Positions 6,060 through 27,331 of a DNA stretch of 29,190 nucleotides are shown one piece after another (the first letter of the stretch is position 1; each line of letters starts with the position of its first letter). Under the pieces are notes generated by a model, which made no database searches, was not told where the DNA came from, and was given only the letters and a program-made list of their open reading frames with translations. The position numbers were made by a program, and so were the translations under genes. Origin of the DNA: a virus; IMG/VR virus record IMGVR_UViG_3300019758_000022, positions 1-29,190 of that record; one strand, written 5' to 3'.

Positions 6060-7924
6060 TGAGTGAAACAACTTACGGATTCAATACACCGGAAAAATAT
6101 AACTATGACACAGCCACAGTAAAAGTAGATGGTGGTAGCGCGTCATTGAACCTGATCCCGTTACCAGGGCAAACATTCAGCGAGGACTATTCCTCAGATA
6201 CTGGATTCACATACGACAATGCGATGGTTGAGTTCTCTGGAGGAGAGGCTAGGCAAATCGACAATTACGACGGGTCAACTTTCGTTACTGACTTCTCTAA
6301 TGGTGTGAATGCCAACGCAGGGGAAGGCAACCTAGTAGGCACGCTCTCTGGTGGAGCGGTAATCGCTAACAGCATTTTAGACCTTACGCAGGCAGACTCT
6401 GCATTAATGTCATTCAACGCAACTGGAAAGATTAACGCCAATGTCGGATCTATCAGGTTTACATACATACCTGGTTACAACGATAGGCCAAACGGATTCA
6501 ATGCCAATATTTTAGAGTTTGAGAATACAATGGACAGTAATCTCAACTTTACAGCAATCAGAAACGATGTTCTGGGAAGGTTATCGGTAAACACTAGAGA
6601 CAACACTGGGGCAAATATTCAGCCCGAGAACACTGTATTCGACACATTCTCATTTGTGTTGGGCCAGAGTTACGATATCGTGTACACATGGGACTTCACA
6701 GCAGGCGACCATAGGCTGTTTATTGATGACGTTCAAATAGGCCCTACATTAACCCAGACTGGGACAAGATCAGACAACCTGACAGACGTTGGCTATTTTT
6801 CGCTAGGGTGGCAGTTTAAAAATCTAGCTTCATTCGATAAAGTAATGATTTTCCCTACTGCCAAATATTTGACTCCACCATTTGATGCTATTCCTATCGT
6901 TCCATATCGGTACGAGGAGAGTTGTATTGTTTCTCCACTTGAAACCGCTGGTGGATCTCCTGATGGTGTTCTTTTGTCAATTGAAGAGTGGACAGTGGTT
7001 GGCGACAATTCCCCTAGGTTCACGTTTAATTCATCTGCTGGCACACCATACTGGTATAACCATGTAACGATGGCGTGGGAGCTATCGGATACCACTTATG
7101 CACAATCAAATACCCCTGATGATTTAATCGCCCACCTAACAGAGTTCCCTTTTGAGGGAGGAACCACAGAGTTTAAGTATGGGGTTTCTTTTAGCGCTAG
7201 TAATACCCTTAGGAGCAGCATTGCGCAGTTGGACGTAGAGTATACTCATCAAGAATATTCAAAGACCCCGCAAGAAATAACAGTTAATAACTGTTGCAGA
7301 TTTTGGGCGAACGAAATGTTTAGCTTTTTGGCTGATGCGACATTTACAGCTACCGAGGACGTTAAGTTCATTATGCTGCTTAGTGGAACAAAATACTGGT
7401 ATGACGGTGCTGCATGGGTGCTAAGTAACGGCACAATTGCACAGGCAAATAGCGCGGCTGAAATAGCGGCCAACATAACTACACTGACAGACACTAGAAA
7501 GCAGATAGCATTTGAAGCACTCCTATACTCTTCTGATGGAATGGCAACACCTTTATTGAACAGCGTTTTTATGTCATACGACGAAGCTCTAGCGGACCCA
7601 TCAAGGCTGCCGAGGTTAGTTGATATCAATGGGTACATATATGACAACAATGGACCAATTGAAGGGCTTAAAATAGAAATTAGACCGTATAGAAGCGGCT
7701 TTAATAACCCTAACGATAACCTAGGCGGAGGAGTTTTCCACGCTTATGTTAAGAGGGAGCTTGGCACAACATTAGCCGATGGTTTCTTTTCCGGTGGGGC
7801 ATATCTACAGCCAGATGGAGATTTTTGGGAGTTTAAGGTTGGTACTCAGTGGTATAAGGGGCACTTACCAGACCAGGACGCAGTAGACTTTAACGAGCTA
7901 ACTCTAACGCTAATGGAGGACTAA
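6059..7924 (+). CDS. large structural protein with LamG-like and repeated domains (621 aa)
   Basis: Residues 20-80 contain two strand motifs (TATVKVDGGSASL and NAMVEFSGGEARQ). Residues about 80-270 look like a concanavalin/LamG jelly roll (GKINANVGSIRFTYIP, YDIVYTWDFTAGDHRLFIDD). Two repeats follow, about 314-397 and 425-510, sharing YWY...W.LS..T.AQ.N. The C-terminus (LVDINGYIYDNNGPIEGLKI) resembles a small Ig/carboxypeptidase-regulatory sandwich. Likely exposed virion decoration, whisker or neck appendage that binds sugars. Ends in TAATG with the next gene. Function inferred; the domain calls are by eye. Confidence 0.6.
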   Translation: MSETTYGFNTPEKYNYDTATVKVDGGSASLNLIPLPGQTFSEDYSSDTGFTYDNAMVEFSGGEARQIDNYDGSTFVTDFSNGVNANAGEGNLVGTLSGGAVIANSILDLTQADSALMSFNATGKINANVGSIRFTYIPGYNDRPNGFNANILEFENTMDSNLNFTAIRNDVLGRLSVNTRDNTGANIQPENTVFDTFSFVLGQSYDIVYTWDFTAGDHRLFIDDVQIGPTLTQTGTRSDNLTDVGYFSLGWQFKNLASFDKVMIFPTAKYLTPPFDAIPIVPYRYEESCIVSPLETAGGSPDGVLLSIEEWTVVGDNSPRFTFNSSAGTPYWYNHVTMAWELSDTTYAQSNTPDDLIAHLTEFPFEGGTTEFKYGVSFSASNTLRSSIAQLDVEYTHQEYSKTPQEITVNNCCRFWANEMFSFLADATFTATEDVKFIMLLSGTKYWYDGAAWVLSNGTIAQANSAAEIAANITTLTDTRKQIAFEALLYSSDGMATPLLNSVFMSYDEALADPSRLPRLVDINGYIYDNNGPIEGLKIEIRPYRSGFNNPNDNLGGGVFHAYVKRELGTTLADGFFSGGAYLQPDGDFWEFKVGTQWYKGHLPDQDAVDFNELTLTLMED

Positions 7925-9294
7925 TGGCACTACCAGCTTCAACAGCAGATAGAGAGAAGGCAAAGTTTGACCGCAATAATAACGTCAAGGTGGCGCTAGG
8001 AAATGAGCTAGGGGCAATTGATATCCAGAATCCGCTTCCGTGTGATGGCGATTCTATTTACGCCAAAGACATAGATGAGGATAATTCCGACCTTTTTGGT
8101 TTCGATGGCGAGATAACAGACTTTTTTACCAGTTTAACCTCTGTTAGTACGGATAGAGCTAGTGCAAACCCTAAAAGGCTTAAATTCTGGTTCAACAGAA
8201 CAATTTACAGCTCTGCCGTTGGGTTAGGCTGCAACGATCCAGTAGGCACATTCTCAAATGTTAAGCTTATCTTATTAGGGTCAGGCGAAGCGGTTAGGAG
8301 GGAGATAGACCTAAGCGCAGATAACACTAAATATACATCATTGCTGATTCAGTTCGAACCTTCTGCATTTAATGGGTTTATATTAGAGTTCTACACTGCT
8401 GATACAGTATGCCTATCTAACATAACAGCAAGAAAAGACGTCAAGGTAGACGCTCAACTTGAGGCGCAGAAGTCAGACGGAACAATGGTTCATATTAAAG
8501 CGTCCAACTCTGGAAATTTACAGATTCAAGATGCTGAAAGCGGTCTGGCAATAGCTAAGGGCGACGTGCAGGACACCACATTTATTCATAAATTCGGTGA
8601 CGCTCCAAACTTCGGTATAGCTGACGGGTTCGTGACGGTGTGGGACGGTGCTAACGGGGCTCTAAATACGCCAGTTGATTACGTTTATTCGGCAACGGCT
8701 GACATAGGGGAGGTTTCATCATCTTCTGCTGCTGATACCGGGCTCTTAGAAGTGCAAGGGCTAGATTCTAATTACAGCATTATTACCCAGACAGTAGCGC
8801 TAACTGGACAGGCTAAAGTTTCACTTCCTACGCCACTTATCAGAGTGTTTAGAGCTAAAAACGTAGGCTCAACAGATCTAGTCGGGCAGGTTTACGTTTA
8901 TGTTACTGGATCGGCCATAACTGGTGGGGTTCCTGCTGTAGCGAACAATGTTAGGGCGATAGTAAACAACGGCAATAATCAAACATTAATGGCAGTATTT
9001 ACAATACCTGCTGGATATACAGGGTATATGCGCGACTGGTACGCAGCCGCATCAGCCGCAAAGCGAGACAGCGTCCACCAAATAGAGCTAGTTGCAAGGC
9101 CTTTCGGGCAAGTGTTCCAGATGAAACACAAATCAAGTATTTCAATCACTGGCACCAGCTACATTCAGCACGTTTACAATGAACCAGAAGTATTTACAGA
9201 GAAAACAGATATAGAAATACACGCTAACACCGATCAGGCCGATGCTGGTGTGTCTGCTGGATTCGATATAGTATTAGTTAAAAACGAGGTTTAA
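7924..9294 (+). CDS. virion structural protein (456 aa)
   Basis: Beta-rich protein coupled by TAATG to the preceding structural gene. Residues 60-165 look like a jelly-roll-like domain (KRLKFWFNRTIYSS, SLLIQFEPSAFNGFILEFY). The C-terminal half (DAPNFGIADGFVTVWDG, NNGNNQTLMAVFTIPAGYTG, DIEIHANTDQADAGVSAGFDIVLVK) resembles a sandwich domain common in virion proteins of marine phages, by recollection. Gene position between capsid and tail terminator suggests neck or head appendage. No enzyme motif. Confidence 0.55.
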   Translation: MALPASTADREKAKFDRNNNVKVALGNELGAIDIQNPLPCDGDSIYAKDIDEDNSDLFGFDGEITDFFTSLTSVSTDRASANPKRLKFWFNRTIYSSAVGLGCNDPVGTFSNVKLILLGSGEAVRREIDLSADNTKYTSLLIQFEPSAFNGFILEFYTADTVCLSNITARKDVKVDAQLEAQKSDGTMVHIKASNSGNLQIQDAESGLAIAKGDVQDTTFIHKFGDAPNFGIADGFVTVWDGANGALNTPVDYVYSATADIGEVSSSSAADTGLLEVQGLDSNYSIITQTVALTGQAKVSLPTPLIRVFRAKNVGSTDLVGQVYVYVTGSAITGGVPAVANNVRAIVNNGNNQTLMAVFTIPAGYTGYMRDWYAAASAAKRDSVHQIELVARPFGQVFQMKHKSSISITGTSYIQHVYNEPEVFTEKTDIEIHANTDQADAGVSAGFDIVLVKNEV

Positions 9295-19372: not shown

Positions 19373-19848
19373 TTAGATTTATAAACTGGATAAAAAGCTT
19401 ATTCGCTCCATCTTTAGAGGGGGCTAAGGCTCCACTAACAAAAACGCCTGTTAATGTTAGTAGATCAATCGATAAGATCATTATCCACTGCACAGCTTCA
19501 GATGTAGATAAGCATGGGCGCAATATGCAGTACTATCTGTATAAGTGGCACGTAGAGGAAAGAGGGTTTAGCGATATTGGCTATCACTTCGGAATCGATC
19601 TTGATGGGCAATTGCTTGCTTTTCGCCCTATAGGAAAAATCGGAGCACATTGCTTCGGTCATAACGCTGGGTCAATAGGAATAGCTGTTCATGGGAAAGA
19701 TAAGTTCTACCAGTGGCAATTCGATGAGCTTAAGTCACTGGTGAATAAACTGTGCAAAGAGTATGGGCTAACATTAGACGATGTTTACCCTCACAGTGCA
19801 TTTAGCGACAAAGCTTGCCCTAATTTTGATATAAAAGAAGTTTTGTAA
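19366..19848 (+). CDS. endolysin: T7-type N-acetylmuramoyl-L-alanine amidase (160 aa)
   Basis: Amidase_2 motifs are clear. Zinc ligands would be H41 (KIIIHCTAS), H143 (YPHSAFSD) and C151 (DKACPNFD), with Y73 (GYHF) and K149 matching the T7 lysozyme catalytic Tyr and Lys. GAHCFGHNAGSIGI is the family core. It cuts the amide bond between muramic acid and L-alanine. Residues 1-33 are an extension relative to T7, with a hydrophobic MVVRFINWIKSLFA; this may anchor it or act as an uncleaved export signal. The ATG lies within the last codons of the fibre gene (ATGGTAG) and lacks a strong binding site, suggesting coupling. Confidence 0.9.
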   Translation: MVVRFINWIKSLFAPSLEGAKAPLTKTPVNVSRSIDKIIIHCTASDVDKHGRNMQYYLYKWHVEERGFSDIGYHFGIDLDGQLLAFRPIGKIGAHCFGHNAGSIGIAVHGKDKFYQWQFDELKSLVNKLCKEYGLTLDDVYPHSAFSDKACPNFDIKEVL

Positions 19849-19858
19849 TTTTTACAAT

Positions 19859-19893
19859 GTAAACTTTACTTAGAGGGCAATTGATACTATATT
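19859..19893 (+). promoter_or_regulatory. promoter with overlapping operator, copy 2 of composite motif
   Basis: GTAAACTTTAC (19859-19869) overlaps the -35 TTTACT (19865-19870); a 17-base spacer leads to -10 TATATT (19888-19893). AATTGATAC (19879-19887) sits directly before the -10, at the same distance from the palindrome as in copy 1 at 249. Predicted start is about 19900, upstream of a non-coding RNA candidate. Confidence 0.55.
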
Positions 19894-23010: not shown

Positions 23011-23262
23011 TTACCACCCTGTGTCTATGTTCATAATTTCAGATATTCTTACAAGCTCATCGTATATCATGGCCAGATCATCATATTTATACATCTGCAT
23101 AATATCAGACTTGCCCGCTCTATCTACGGCTTGCATTACGTTGTTATTAGACACACCGCCAAACATGGCAGCAACAGCTATTAGATCAGCTTCGCTCTCT
23201 ATGCGTATTGAAACAGAGAATGGCTCAAAGCACTTGTGCGGAACAGTTGAATCGACTTTCAT
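23011..23262 (-). CDS. hypothetical protein (83 aa)
   Basis: Preceded by AAAGGGGAAGTAAAA and by a promoter at 23289-23317. The sequence has VSIRIESEADLIAVAAMFGGVSN followed by a helical region with several Met and Asp. This pattern of a short beta strand then helix recurs in phage early proteins, but no function is known to me. First gene of a possible ERF-SSB-nuclease sub-operon. Confidence 0.65.
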   Translation of the reverse strand: MKVDSTVPHKCFEPFSVSIRIESEADLIAVAAMFGGVSNNNVMQAVDRAGKSDIMQMYKYDDLAMIYDELVRISEIMNIDTGW

Positions 23263-24021: not shown

Positions 24022-24470
24022 CTATTCACCTCAATGTATCCAAGTTTTAAAAATGTCTCTTTTGCTCTTTGAGCATCACATTCAGAGTTATATCTAAGAC
24101 AATAGTCGGTTCCGTTGTCGCATCTTGCAATTAACTCATTGCCGTAAACCTCAAGACTTTCAATTTCTTGTGTCTTGCGTGGAGTTCTCTTCGCCTTTCC
24201 CCCGAAGTGAATAAAGCAATTTTTAAGCGCCTCAGTGTAATCGGACCCAGCTTGTACTCTTTGCATGAGCATATCAATCACTCTTGCATCAATCGCTGAC
24301 ATTTGGCCCTTACAGTGCGCTACCGATCTAAGTGCGTCTTTTACTGGAAGCTTACACTCAATTGCCAGCAATAGATTGTGTGTAAAAGTTACATACTCAT
24401 CCGTTAGTTCGTATTTGCTTGCAAGCTCAACCGCAGATAGCTTGCTTTCAAACTCTTTGTTTATTTCCAT
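24018..24470 (-). CDS. hypothetical protein (150 aa)
   Basis: Start has AAAAGGGGAAAAC upstream. Residues 1-95 are helical (SKLSAVELASKYELTDEYVTFT, AIDARVIDMLMQRVQAG), then a basic stretch GGKAKRTPRKT, then a small beta domain (IESLEVYGNELIARCDNGTDY, CLRYNSECDAQRAKETFLKL). No motif identifies it. The basic hinge could touch DNA. It follows the helicase gene after a 57-base gap containing a dyad. Confidence 0.65.
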   Translation of the reverse strand: MEINKEFESKLSAVELASKYELTDEYVTFTHNLLLAIECKLPVKDALRSVAHCKGQMSAIDARVIDMLMQRVQAGSDYTEALKNCFIHFGGKAKRTPRKTQEIESLEVYGNELIARCDNGTDYCLRYNSECDAQRAKETFLKLGYIEVNR

Positions 24471-24527: not shown

Positions 24528-25334
24528 TTATTTTAGTATATTTCTTTGTCCGTAGTTTTCCTTCATTGTTTCAAAATCTATGGGCCAATCTTGAATATAA
24601 GAATTTGCTTTAGGGCTGTACTCAAGCGCAAAGAATTTACCTTCGATCTGCTGGCTTCTATGCTTCTCGATATTGATAAAGTTAAAATAACTCTCCCCAA
24701 TAGAAAGCTTCTGAAACACGTAGAGAAACTCAATGAAATTTATAACGCCTTTAGAGCCTCTAATATCGTTTCCGCTCAGTAGGCCCTGATTATAAATATT
24801 AATATCGCCTTTTGTGTGTGCAACAAACAGAATCGGGATATTAGTCTCGGCCGCGTACTTTTTCATTTCTCTGATTACTGAGTTTTGAACACTAGGTTTA
24901 AGATCAGCGTAAGCTGCTGAGGTGGTGATATTATCAAAAATAACAATATCAGGATTACATTCTGCTACGTGTGCCTTGAGTGCGTTTACTATTCCCATGC
25001 CCTCTGAGTTTATGCATAGGGGAGACTCAAGCTCTGACACAACTGTTATATTTTTGATTAAGCTGTTGGATATTCCCTTGTTGGCGATATGCTTTCTAAA
25101 CGTCTTCTCAGTTTCTTCTGATAGCCAGTAGAGGATTTTAACGTCTTTGGCCATATCGAAAATAATAGACTTCATAAGCGTTGTCTTGCCAGATCCCGAT
25201 GTACTAAGCAGCATATGAAGCTCGCCAGGTCTAAACCCATTGTGGGTCATGAGAAATTTAAACTTGCTTTTAAAGTAAACAGTCTCGTCCTCTTCGATCA
25301 GCTTTAAGCGATCAAACTCACTAATTTCCAGCAT
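24528..25334 (-). CDS. RecA/DnaB-fold replicative helicase-type ATPase (268 aa)
   Basis: Single RecA-fold ATPase domain. Walker A is LSTSGSGKTT (44-52), where the first Gly of the GxxxxGKT pattern is replaced by Ser44. LSEE (71-74) holds the likely catalytic Glu; Walker B is DIVIFDN (129-135); FVAHTKGD near 170 and GSKGVINFIEFLYVF near 200 resemble DnaB motifs H3 and H4. It lacks the DnaB N-terminal collar. Gene order after the initiator supports a DnaB- or RepA-like helicase, though a loader ATPase is possible. GAGGAGAAATTTT precedes the ATG; overlaps the initiator by 14 bases. Confidence 0.8.
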   Translation of the reverse strand: MLEISEFDRLKLIEEDETVYFKSKFKFLMTHNGFRPGELHMLLSTSGSGKTTLMKSIIFDMAKDVKILYWLSEETEKTFRKHIANKGISNSLIKNITVVSELESPLCINSEGMGIVNALKAHVAECNPDIVIFDNITTSAAYADLKPSVQNSVIREMKKYAAETNIPILFVAHTKGDINIYNQGLLSGNDIRGSKGVINFIEFLYVFQKLSIGESYFNFINIEKHRSQQIEGKFFALEYSPKANSYIQDWPIDFETMKENYGQRNILK

Positions 25335-26070
25335 AAAATTTCTCCTCGGCTTCCTCTAACGATAAAACACCCGCAGGCTTTTTAAATATCTCTTTGAAAA
25401 TTTCCTCTTGGGTTTTGGGCCTTTCAATATCAGCGAAGTCCTCCCATTCTCCCGCGAAGGTAGAGAAGTGCTTTATAAATCTCGGCTCTTTGTTTTCAGC
25501 TTTGCACATGGCGGCATAGTTTTCTATTGCTCGTGTAAGTTTTTTATACTGCTCAAGCGATGTGATATCTTTTTGAAGCTTTGCAATGCCTTTAGATTTC
25601 CCTTTTTTCAGAGGGTAGAGCTCATAGGCAGATTCAAGATCAAAAGCAGGAGCAGGGGAAACTTTAACAACAGACTCAACCTCTTTCCTTTTCTTTACTT
25701 TACTTTTCTTTACTTTAGGAGCAACTTCTGAAATTTTGGCTGTGTACTTCCCTAAATATTTCGCCGTATTAGGCATATCGAACTCTATAAAATGTCCCGA
25801 GAAAGTCGCGACAAAGACGCCACTTTGTTCCAACTTTGTTATGACTTTGTTGCAACTCTTTGACTGCTTTCTCCAAAGACTTCTGACACTTTGTTGGTGA
25901 ATTCTTATCGGATTAACCACTTCGTCCTGACATTGTCGGTACAATAATTCCAACAATGAGAAGTAATATCCGTACCCCTCAAAGCCAAGATCATCGATAA
26001 TTGCCTGTATCTTTTCATCGTCTGTCGCAAAAAGAGAGTGCCTAAAATAGAGCTTTTTACCACTGGCCAT
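25321..26070 (-). CDS. replication initiator, Lin1244/DUF4373-type (249 aa)
   Basis: Residues 1-75 (YFRHSLFATDDEKIQAIIDD, FEGYGYYFSLLELLYRQ) match the Lin1244/Lin1753 N-terminal domain of phage replication proteins, a winged-helix-like fold. A Lys-rich linker (KVKKSKVKKRKEVE) follows. Residues 145-215 (AYELYPLKKGKSKGIAKLQK, YAAMCKAENKEPRFIKHFSTFAGEWEDF) match the C-terminal domain often seen in phage primosome proteins. It probably binds the origin and delivers the adjacent helicase. Start has GGTGGAG and TAATG coupling. An origin was not recognised. Confidence 0.8.
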   Translation of the reverse strand: MASGKKLYFRHSLFATDDEKIQAIIDDLGFEGYGYYFSLLELLYRQCQDEVVNPIRIHQQSVRSLWRKQSKSCNKVITKLEQSGVFVATFSGHFIEFDMPNTAKYLGKYTAKISEVAPKVKKSKVKKRKEVESVVKVSPAPAFDLESAYELYPLKKGKSKGIAKLQKDITSLEQYKKLTRAIENYAAMCKAENKEPRFIKHFSTFAGEWEDFADIERPKTQEEIFKEIFKKPAGVLSLEEAEEKFYAGN

Positions 26071-26219
26071 TACTCCACCTCTTTGCGCTCAATTATTATT
26101 TCGGCCTCGTCATTATGGGGGTCATAACATACATGAATGAGATCGGATTCAGTTAGACGAAGAGCAGTCTCCAACTCAAACCTGGTAAAAGTTAGATTTT
26201 CAGTTTTAATTGTTATCAT
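26070..26219 (-). CDS. small acidic leader protein of the replication operon (49 aa)
   Basis: First gene after the replication promoter. GATAGGAGGTTCT before ATG is a canonical binding site, unlike the AAGGGG type of its neighbours. Sequence MITIKTENLTFTRFELETAL then a beta-type end EAEIIIERKEVE. Coupled to the initiator by TAATG. No known family; length and place suggest a small regulator or coupling peptide. Confidence 0.65.
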   Translation of the reverse strand: MITIKTENLTFTRFELETALRLTESDLIHVCYDPHNDEAEIIIERKEVE

Positions 26220-26234
26220 AGAACCTCCTATCGG

Positions 26235-26263
26235 TTGACATAGAGGTAGGATTATTCTAAATT
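26235..26263 (+). promoter_or_regulatory. plus-strand promoter facing the replication promoter
   Basis: TTGACA (26235-26240, perfect -35), 17-base spacer, TAAATT (26258-26263). Start predicted near 26270. It points toward the minus-strand replication promoter (start near 26283), and no plus-strand gene follows before the terminator at 26286-26332. Confidence 0.55.
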
Positions 26264-26273
26264 AACCCTACCT
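26244..26273. repeat. 11-bp dyad in the replication leader
   Basis: AGGTAGGATTA (26244-26254) and TAACCCTACCT (26263-26273) pair with one wobble around an 8-base loop. The dyad covers the -10 of the plus promoter. In the minus-strand mRNA it forms a hairpin 25 bases before the start codon at 26219. Operator or leader structure. Confidence 0.6.
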
Positions 26274-26332
26274 ATAAAATTGAATCCCCACTATAGAGCA
26301 GGCTTAAAAACTTGTAAAGTAGTGGGGTTTTT
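26270..26332 (+). ncRNA. candidate antisense small RNA (about 63 nt)
   Basis: From the plus promoter to a terminator: CCCCACTA (26286-26293) pairs with TAGTGGGG (26320-26327), followed by TTTTT. The 26-base loop contains a smaller CAGG/CTTG pairing. No ORF. The first ~14 bases are complementary to the 5-prime end of the replication mRNA. It could reduce replication gene expression by pairing or by promoter interference, as with other phage antisense RNAs; untested. Confidence 0.45.
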
Positions 26333-26335
26333 ATT
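26286..26335 (+). terminator. terminator embedded over the replication promoter
   Basis: An 8-base-pair GC-rich stem with a 26-base loop and a TTTTTATTT tail on the plus strand. The same bases hold the minus-strand -10 and -35, so the dyad also spans the promoter for the replication operon. Confidence 0.5.
26290..26318 (-). promoter_or_regulatory. main promoter of the replication operon
   Basis: On the minus strand TTTACA (26318-26313), 17-base spacer, TATAGT (26295-26290). Start near 26283, giving a leader of about 64 bases before the first gene at 26219. Identical hexamers occur at 23289-23317. Confidence 0.65.
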
Positions 26336-26359
26336 TGTAATGTTTATAATTCAAGACAA

Positions 26360-26374
26360 GTGTAAATTTTACAC
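26360..26374. promoter_or_regulatory. perfect 15-bp palindrome, operator candidate
   Basis: GTGTAAATTTTACAC has 7-base arms around a central T and is a fuller version of the GTAAANTTTAC motif. It lies 42 bases upstream of the replication -35 and next to the terminator of the regulatory operon. Confidence 0.55.
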
Positions 26375-26398
26375 AAAAAAAAGAGGGCCTCAGCCCCC
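26375..26398 (-). terminator. terminator of the minus-strand regulatory operon
   Basis: On the minus strand GGGGGC TGAG GCCCTC is followed by eight T. The stop codon of the gene above overlaps the first base of the stem. It isolates the replication operon from upstream transcription. Confidence 0.85.
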
Positions 26399-26610
26399 TA
26401 AATCAAATCTTTAAACCGCTCTATTAGCTCCTCAATCTCTTCTATTTTCTGCTCAAATATAGCGATCGATCGCTTGTCGTCTTTACAGCACATCTTTACC
26501 AGGTGCTTGTAGTCCTCTAGCCTCTTATCAAGACCGCATTGGATCATAACAGATTCGTTTATATTAAGACTAATATCGTACCTTCTCAGGTATCTTACTT
26601 TATCTTCCAC
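26398..26610 (-). CDS. hypothetical protein, GTG start (70 aa)
   Basis: GTG at 26610 is chosen because AAGGAGG lies 6 bases upstream; a longer ATG frame (26679) would extend deep into the preceding gene. Sequence begins (M)EDKVRYLRRYDISLNINESV and ends in a coiled-coil helix (AIFEQKIEEIEELIERFKDL). Two adjacent Cys (MCCKDD). Function unknown; last gene before a terminator. Confidence 0.65.
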   Translation of the reverse strand: MEDKVRYLRRYDISLNINESVMIQCGLDKRLEDYKHLVKMCCKDDKRSIAIFEQKIEEIEELIERFKDLI

Positions 26611-26827
26611 CGTGTACCTCCTTGAGCCTAGCAGCAAAAAACTGATTACCGTCAAAGCTTGACTTGCCACCAAATTCAAAGGTTTTGCCGACCATTTTGA
26701 GCCTGTCTATTGGCATAATTTCACTGATGCCTGTAATTTTTACACATATCAGCCCTTTTTCATCTAAACATAAAAACTCTTCGTTAAAATCACAGTACTT
26801 TTTAACCTCGACAATTATCGTTTCCAT
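26600..26827 (-). CDS. hypothetical protein (75 aa)
   Basis: Start at 26827 is supported by AGGGGGG just upstream; a longer form from 26848 would overlap the preceding gene. METIIVEVKKYCDFNEEFLC is followed by strand-rich sequence (GLICVKITGISEIMPIDRLK) and FAARLKEVHGGR. Probably a small beta-type domain. Not recognised. Overlaps the next gene by 11 bases. Confidence 0.6.
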   Translation of the reverse strand: METIIVEVKKYCDFNEEFLCLDEKGLICVKITGISEIMPIDRLKMVGKTFEFGGKSSFDGNQFFAARLKEVHGGR

Positions 26828-26835
26828 ATGCCCCC

Positions 26836-27051
26836 CTATTTTTTCCATACGTCACAATCATCAACTAGAACAAAAGTCTTTGTCTCGCCATTGTCCATTT
26901 TAACCGTAACAGTAGCAGAGTGATGAGCAACAGCAAGTTCGAGTATTTCAAGCCCAAGCCGAAAAATAGCACTCTTTGAAAGATCGTTGTCTTTGATAAA
27001 TAGTTCTTCCTCTTCTGATATCCTAGCGTGGACCCGCTTAGTTTTATTCAT
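26836..27051 (-). CDS. ribbon-helix-helix regulator candidate (71 aa)
   Basis: AAGGGGGC before the ATG at 27051 favours this over the start at 27075. KRVHARISEEEELFIKDNDL, SKSAIFRLGLEILELA fits the Arc/MetJ ribbon-helix-helix pattern: a basic strand (residues 4-10) and two helices with a Ser-Lys-Ser turn. Such dimers bind palindromic operators. A beta extension (ATVTVKMDNGETKTFVLV) follows. Several palindromes flank this operon, so autoregulation is likely but unproved. Confidence 0.6.
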   Translation of the reverse strand: MNKTKRVHARISEEEELFIKDNDLSKSAIFRLGLEILELAVAHHSATVTVKMDNGETKTFVLVDDCDVWKK

Positions 27052-27274: not shown

Positions 27275-27303
27275 ATTCTATCATGTACGCACAGCTTTGT
27301 ACA
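27275..27303 (-). promoter_or_regulatory. promoter of the regulatory operon with overlapping palindrome
   Basis: On the minus strand TGTACA (27303-27298), 17-base spacer, TAGAAT (27280-27275). The palindrome TGTACGCACAGCTTTGTACA (27284-27303, matching arms of 5) covers the -35 and spacer, an ideal repressor position. Confidence 0.5.
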
Positions 27304-27331
27304 CACAAGATTTCTTAAGATTGGCTAAGTG

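What the first reader, a model, noticed from the sequence alone, without database searches (positions are those of the whole stretch)
26235..26332. Face-to-face promoters with a terminated antisense RNA at the replication operon
A plus-strand promoter (TTGACA-N17-TAAATT) and the minus-strand replication promoter (TTTACA-N17-TATAGT) point at each other with predicted starts about 13 bases apart. The plus RNA meets no ORF and would stop at a terminator whose stem overlays the opposite promoter. The 5-prime ends of both RNAs would be complementary over about 14 bases. Such a layout could form a compact switch by promoter interference and antisense pairing, so that the replication genes and the small RNA exclude each other. 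I know of related logic in P2/186 and lambda OOP, but not of a terminator stem doubling as the competing promoter.
Basis: partly seen in the sequence, partly recalled or inferred. Interest (0 to 1): 0.72.

Follow-up and report, generated by a model that had tools for sequence, protein, structure and literature searches.

The report
Small-RNA gene opposing phage replication promoter
In an unnamed phage, the promoter for the DNA-replication genes directly faces and overlaps a strong promoter for a predicted 66-base non-coding RNA, so the two probably block each other and limit replication-gene expression; this is a compact version of known arrangements (transposon IS10, phage lambda), not a new kind of system.

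Summary
The layout is real. P+ (26235-26263) scores highest of all promoter-like sites in the window and P- (26318-26290) ties for third. Their predicted starts are 13 bases apart. P+ is followed by a strong intrinsic terminator (hairpin 26286-26327, -19.1 kcal/mol, then TTTTTATTT) that the simple scanner missed. In 400 shuffles of the window, no strong promoter was followed by such a terminator, and 1.5% had any face-to-face pair. No plus-strand gene lies upstream, so P+ plus terminator is best read as a ~66-nt non-coding RNA gene. P- is supported by a twin promoter at 23317-23289 and is the only good start for the replication operon, because the upstream operon ends at its own terminator.

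Most likely mechanism: mutual exclusion of RNA polymerase, with P+ damping the initiator operon. A 12-16 bp 5'-5' RNA duplex is possible but lies 41 nt or more from the ribosome site. Bistability is unsupported. The 'terminator stem doubling as competing promoter' has a precedent: IS10 RNA-OUT's hairpin overlies pIN. Lambda pO/pR and pMV158 RNAII are also close.

No relative of this region was found, so conservation is untested, and no RNA data exist. New variant of a known kind.

By-product: a TGTAAANTTTACA operator family, 7 sites against 0.09 expected.

The parts
26235..26263 (+). P+: TTGACA-N17-TAAATT, predicted start A26270; promoter of the putative small RNA
   Evidence: Highest promoter score of the window, 11.5 bits; scan
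26270..26336 (+). Putative ~66-nt non-coding RNA: 16-nt unpaired 5' tail, hairpin, U-rich 3' end
   Evidence: Fold -20.7 kcal/mol, z -3.2; no coding potential; no Rfam family
26286..26336 (+). Intrinsic terminator of the small RNA: CCCCACTAT...AGTAGTGGGG then TTTTTATTT
   Evidence: -19.1 kcal/mol, z -3.7; among the strongest + strand terminators
26290..26318 (-). P-: TTTACA-N17-TATAGT, promoter of the replication operon; -10 lies in the 5' arm of the terminator stem
   Evidence: Joint 3rd promoter score; twin at 23317-23289
26241..26276 (-). Hairpin at the 5' end of the replication mRNA; as DNA, an inverted repeat straddling the P+ -10
   Evidence: 12 of 14 pairs, loop 8; -14.2 kcal/mol, z -3.8
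26224..26229 (-). Shine-Dalgarno AGGAGG of the first replication-operon ORF
   Evidence: Sequence
26070..26219 (-). First ORF of the operon, 49 aa, no family
25321..26070 (-). Replication initiator, 249 aa (Lin1244_N; phrog_2562)
   Evidence: E 6.6e-8 Pfam, 1.5e-8 PHROG
24528..25334 (-). DnaB/RecA-like ATPase, 268 aa
   Evidence: phrog_239 E 3.8e-13, AAA_25 E 2.3e-11
25822..25895 (+). Iteron-like ACTTTGTT repeats (three tandem at 11 bp, one more at 25888): candidate origin inside the initiator gene
   Evidence: All four window copies lie here
26361..26373 (.). Perfect TGTAAATTTTACA palindrome, centre about -84 from P-; possible regulator site
   Evidence: 7 sites of at least 11/12 in the window against 0.09 expected
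26382..26399 (-). Terminator of the upstream minus operon; insulates P- from read-through
   Evidence: AGGGGGCTGAGGCCCTCT + TTTTTTT

Best explanation
P+ and its terminator form a ~66-nt non-coding RNA gene built across the promoter of the phage replication operon. P+ and P- occupy the same ~100 bp, so RNA polymerase can hold only one at a time. Each elongation run also passes over the other promoter: from P+ through the P- -10 and -35 up to the terminator, and from P- through P+. P+ has the better consensus, so it should normally dominate and damp transcription of the initiator operon, and with it transcription through the candidate origin in the initiator gene. An activator, perhaps at the TGTAAANTTTACA palindrome upstream of P-, or a repressor of P+, would tip the balance. 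Pairing of the two free 5' tails is a possible secondary effect on mRNA stability. Shown here: sequence elements, folds, gene context, chance statistics. Inferred: transcription, dominance, interference, regulation.
For: P+ and P- rank 1st and joint 3rd in the window, with starts 13 bases apart. Promoter-plus-terminator combination 0/400 in shuffles; face-to-face pair 1.5%. The terminator has no plus-strand gene to serve: all genes from 27250 down to about 21173 are on the minus strand. P- has a twin with the same hexamers and spacer length plus shared CTATAGTGNNNATTCAA, which has no other match with fewer than 3 mismatches. P- is the only site of at least 10/12 between the upstream terminator (26382) and the first ORF. 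Interference with steric exclusion is established in similar layouts: helD (PMC12802891), 186 pR/pL (PMC6593788), lambda pO on pR at a replication operon (PMC3985674).
Against: No RNA data. Host unknown, so sigma-70 consensus is an assumption. No relative of the replication module was found, so nothing shows that P+ or the terminator is conserved. The weight matrix was approximate and written from memory. Strong sigma-70-like sites are common by chance (2.6 per shuffled window).
Confidence: 0.55

Rival explanations
1. The plus RNA acts in trans as an antisense RNA: its free 16-nt 5' tail pairs with the free 5' end of the replication mRNA, as pMV158 RNAII or IS10 RNA-OUT do, and lowers expression or stability of the mRNA.
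For: Both RNAs carry unpaired, perfectly complementary 5' tails next to strong hairpins; duplex -17.4 kcal/mol, complex -52.6 against about -40.8 separately. The anatomy resembles pMV158 RNAII: 17-nt single-stranded 5' tail, hairpin, 8-nt U-rich end (PMC4485353).
Against: The complementarity follows automatically from overlapping starts. The duplex is 41 nt or more from the Shine-Dalgarno site and leaves it free; in IS10 35 nt pair and cover the translation start. 12-16 bp is short for RNase III.
Confidence: 0.2
2. P+ is a chance match; the inverted repeats are protein operators or mRNA structure, and P- alone works.
For: Shuffled windows contain 0.5 sites as good as P+. The palindrome at 26241-26276 covers the P+ -10, so its bases may be constrained for another reason.
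Against: The downstream hairpin has a one-sided U-tract on the plus strand, as a terminator and not an operator would, and sits at a small-RNA distance; 0 of 400 shuffles give this combination.
Confidence: 0.17
3. The plus transcript, or transcription from P+, serves replication itself (primer or origin activation).
For: It lies in the replication region, ~400 bp from iteron-like repeats; oop was once proposed as a lambda primer (PMC3985674).
Against: It is transcribed away from the candidate origin and terminates after 66 nt. For lambda the primer idea was considered unlikely.
Confidence: 0.05
4. It is the central lysis-lysogeny switch of P2/186 type.
For: Face-to-face geometry; a scattered palindromic operator suggests a phage-wide regulator.
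Against: The plus transcript encodes nothing, and no repressor or integrase was recognised among the proteins scanned.
Confidence: 0.03

Closest known systems
IS10/Tn10 pIN-pOUT, RNA-IN/RNA-OUT
   Same: Face-to-face promoters with overlapping 5' ends; short (69-nt) antisense RNA whose hairpin overlies the competing promoter (R5 and HH104 in pIN destabilise RNA-OUT; RNA-OUT ends at nt 47) (PMC5006887)
   Different: 35-nt overlap covering the translation start against 12-16 nt far from it here; a transposase gene, not a replication operon
Phage lambda pO/oop against pR
   Same: Short terminated leftward RNA opposing the replication operon; pO activity lowers pR transcription and affects replication (PMC3985674)
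   Different: In lambda pO lies far downstream of pR and oop pairs with cII mRNA; here the promoters themselves overlap and no repressor gene is involved
B. subtilis helD/pps convergent dual promoters
   Same: Convergent sense/antisense promoters, ~90-nt terminated antisense RNA, control by interference (PMC12802891)
   Different: 39 bp between starts (two polymerases fit) against about 14 bp here; no rifampicin logic implied
Phage 186 pR/pL and P2 Pe/Pc
   Same: Convergent phage promoters with transcriptional interference (PMC6593788)
   Different: Both promoters drive protein genes and are further apart; here one side is non-coding
pMV158 RNAII
   Same: Antisense RNA at a replication operon; 17-nt 5' tail + hairpin + U-tail (PMC4485353)
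   Different: RNAII inhibits repB translation; here the mRNA overlap is only at the 5' ends

Membership tests
Intrinsically terminated small-RNA gene | Promoter, short non-coding stretch, intrinsic terminator, no gene served | tested here: met
Intrinsically terminated small-RNA gene | RNA detected in cells | not testable with these tools
   No transcriptome data
IS10 RNA-OUT-like antisense system | Antisense hairpin overlies the competing promoter, 5' ends overlap | tested here: met
   Hairpin 26286-26327 contains the P- -10 and most of the -35
IS10 RNA-OUT-like antisense system | Pairing covers the translation initiation region | tested here: not met
   Duplex ends at 26270; Shine-Dalgarno at 26229-26224
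IS10 RNA-OUT-like antisense system | Homology to IS10 RNA-OUT | tested here: inconclusive
   No Rfam family reaches its gathering score in the window; the RNA-OUT sequence itself was not compared
Lambda oop-type RNA | Short terminated RNA opposing the replication operon promoter | tested here: met
Lambda oop-type RNA | Overlaps the 3' end of a cII-like gene | tested here: not met
   The plus RNA overlaps no gene
P2/186 lysis-lysogeny switch | Both face-to-face promoters express switch proteins | tested here: not met
   The plus transcript is non-coding
pMV158 RNAII-type copy control | Antisense RNA inhibits initiator translation through its 5' tail | not testable with these tools
   5' tail present, but it pairs far from the ribosome site

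The most novel reading that the evidence does not exclude
The phage throttles its own replication operon by a minimal mutual-exclusion device in which both promoters lie inside the structured 5' regions of each other's transcripts (P- inside the small RNA's terminator stem, P+ inside the mRNA's leader hairpin), so any mutation changes promoter and RNA together. It would be tuned by a phage-wide regulator that binds the TGTAAANTTTACA sites.
Probability: 0.15. Interest if true: 0.6.

Novelty: new variant of a known kind. Interest (0 to 1): 0.42.

Why it matters
If both promoters work, this is a very tight convergent pair at a phage replication operon (about 14 bp between starts, under the spacing at which helD regulation fails). 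It would test pure steric exclusion of RNA polymerase, without collision or antisense pairing, as a way to set replication-gene output. It would also extend the IS10 design to phage replication control.

Tried and rejected
Relatives: DNA search in phages, tblastn of ATPase and initiator in phages (only 29-40% coverage at 31-37% identity in Lactococcus phages), IMG/VR scans with the ATPase, initiator, capsid, ERF and tape-measure proteins and GTDB genomes. One capsid relative on a 5-kb contig (L002) and many ERF loci turned up, but none with this replication region. These scans need an exact peptide match, so relatives below about 65% identity can be missed.

Promoter motif TTTACA-N17-TATAGTG-NNN-ATTCAA in IMG/VR gave one hit, inside a T4-type uvsW-like gene: chance. 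The small-RNA gene pattern gave none.

Rfam: nothing at gathering score. Trans targets of the 5' tail or loop at phage start sites: no better than shuffled tails.

RHH-like regulator at 26836-27051: single-sequence AlphaFold pLDDT 60, no Pfam match, so the binding protein stays unidentified.

Rejected: terminator serving an upstream plus gene (none exists); hairpin as terminator for the minus strand (no U-tract that side, and a dedicated terminator at 26399-26382).

Full report
Setting. The window is one 29,190-base IMG/VR virus record, an apparently partial tailed-phage contig: portal-like, major head, tape measure and endolysin proteins are recognised, with no tRNA; no terminase large subunit was recognised among the proteins scanned. 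A minus-strand operon starts at 26219. It holds a 49-aa ORF, a 249-aa replication initiator (Lin1244_N, phrog_2562), a 268-aa DnaB/RecA-like ATPase, several small ORFs, an ERF recombinase, an SSB and a VRR-NUC nuclease. Upstream, another short minus operon ends at a strong terminator, 26399-26382. The finding lies in the 178-bp gap between them.

Check of the observation. Both promoters and their spacing are as described. With an approximate sigma-70 weight matrix, P+ has the best score of the window (11.5 bits) and P- ties for third (10.5), with predicted starts 26270 and about 26283. The pattern scanner missed it because the closing loop of the outer stem is long. In 400 dinucleotide shuffles a face-to-face pair of this strength within 30 nt appeared in 1.5%, a strong promoter followed by such a terminator in none, and the joint layout in none. 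Each promoter on its own is not exceptional (2.6 expected, 4 seen).

Why P- is probably real. It has a twin at 23317-23289, in front of the gene at 23262, with identical hexamers and spacer length and the shared downstream sequence CTATAGTGNNNATTCAA; the other matches in the window have three mismatches. The upstream operon is terminated at 26382, and P- is the only site of at least 10/12 in the remaining gap.

Why P+ plus terminator is probably a small-RNA gene. No plus-strand gene lies upstream for about 5 kb, so the terminator has nothing else to end. The RNA would be about 66 nt, starting with A, with a 16-nt free 5' tail and a hairpin with a U-rich end. It codes for nothing recognisable and matches no Rfam family.

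How it most likely works. The two promoters share about 100 bp, so polymerase at one excludes polymerase at the other, and each elongation run passes over the other promoter. P+ has the better consensus and should dominate unless P- is helped; this step is inferred. In the B. subtilis helD system the starts are 39 bp apart, and shortening this by 17 bp abolished inducibility, as the authors predicted from steric clash (PMC12802891). Here the distance is about 14 bp, so steric exclusion rather than collision is expected. Lambda offers a functional parallel: pO activity lowers pR transcription, and its loss disturbs replication (PMC3985674). The replication parallel is strengthened by iteron-like ACTTTGTT repeats in the initiator gene at 25822-25895, which transcription from P- would cross.

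Antisense pairing. The 5' tails can form a 12-16 bp duplex (-17.4 kcal/mol). It ends 41 nt from the Shine-Dalgarno sequence and leaves it free, unlike IS10, where 35 nt pair over the translation start (PMC5006887). The duplex is therefore at best a secondary effect on mRNA stability. No phage start site pairs with the tail or loop better than shuffled sequences do.

Comparison with known systems. The claim that a terminator stem doubling as the competing promoter is unknown does not hold: in IS10, R5 and HH104 are changes in pIN that also destabilise RNA-OUT, whose hairpin overlies pIN. The free 5' tail, hairpin and U-tail resemble pMV158 RNAII (PMC4485353). P2/186 switches differ because both promoters there express proteins. 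I file this as a new variant of convergent-promoter/antisense control, not as a member of any one of these families.

A symmetric feature. The replication mRNA also begins with a strong hairpin, 26276-26241 (-14.2 kcal/mol, z -3.8), whose DNA covers the P+ -10. Each promoter thus lies in the structured 5' region of the other's transcript. Whether this is a constraint of compactness, a DNA operator or an mRNA stabiliser cannot be told from one sequence.

A regulator site. A perfect palindrome, TGTAAATTTTACA, lies upstream of P- at 26361-26373. Seven matches of at least 11/12 occur in the window against 0.09 expected, with none of 200 shuffles reaching five; several lie in gaps next to promoters. 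This is statistically the strongest regulatory signal seen, and a plausible way to tip the P+/P- balance. The binding protein is unknown.

Limits. No relatives of the replication module were found in phage records, IMG/VR or GTDB genomes, so there is no test by conservation or covariation. There are no RNA data, and the host is unknown.

Noticed in passing
248-260, 1965-1977, 19844-19856, 19858-19870, 24381-24393, 26361-26373, 26732-26744: Family of TGTAAANTTTACA palindromes (at least 11 of 12), 7 against 0.09 expected; several overlap or flank predicted promoters in gene gaps. Looks like a phage-wide operator set.
   Followed up: partly
23317-23289: Second minus promoter inside the replication operon with the same hexamers and spacer length as P- and shared CTATAGTGNNNATTCAA.
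   Followed up: yes
25822-25895: Four ACTTTGTT repeats (three tandem at 11-bp steps) inside the initiator gene: candidate iterons/origin; the motif occurs nowhere else in the window.
   Followed up: partly
27284-27307: Two near-identical 10-mers (TGTACGCACA, TGTACACACA) 14 bp apart overlapping the minus promoter 27303-27275 of the upstream operon; possible operator pair.
   Followed up: no
26836-27051: 71-aa ORF whose N-terminus looks like a ribbon-helix-helix regulator by eye; Pfam gave no match and the single-sequence model was poor.
   Followed up: partly
7924-9294: 456-aa protein whose C-terminal part resembles tail-fibre or hypothetical proteins of Synechococcus phages (about 34% identity).
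   Followed up: no
L002: 5-kb IMG/VR contig with a capsid protein 65% identical to the window's; the only near relative found, without a replication region.
   Followed up: partly
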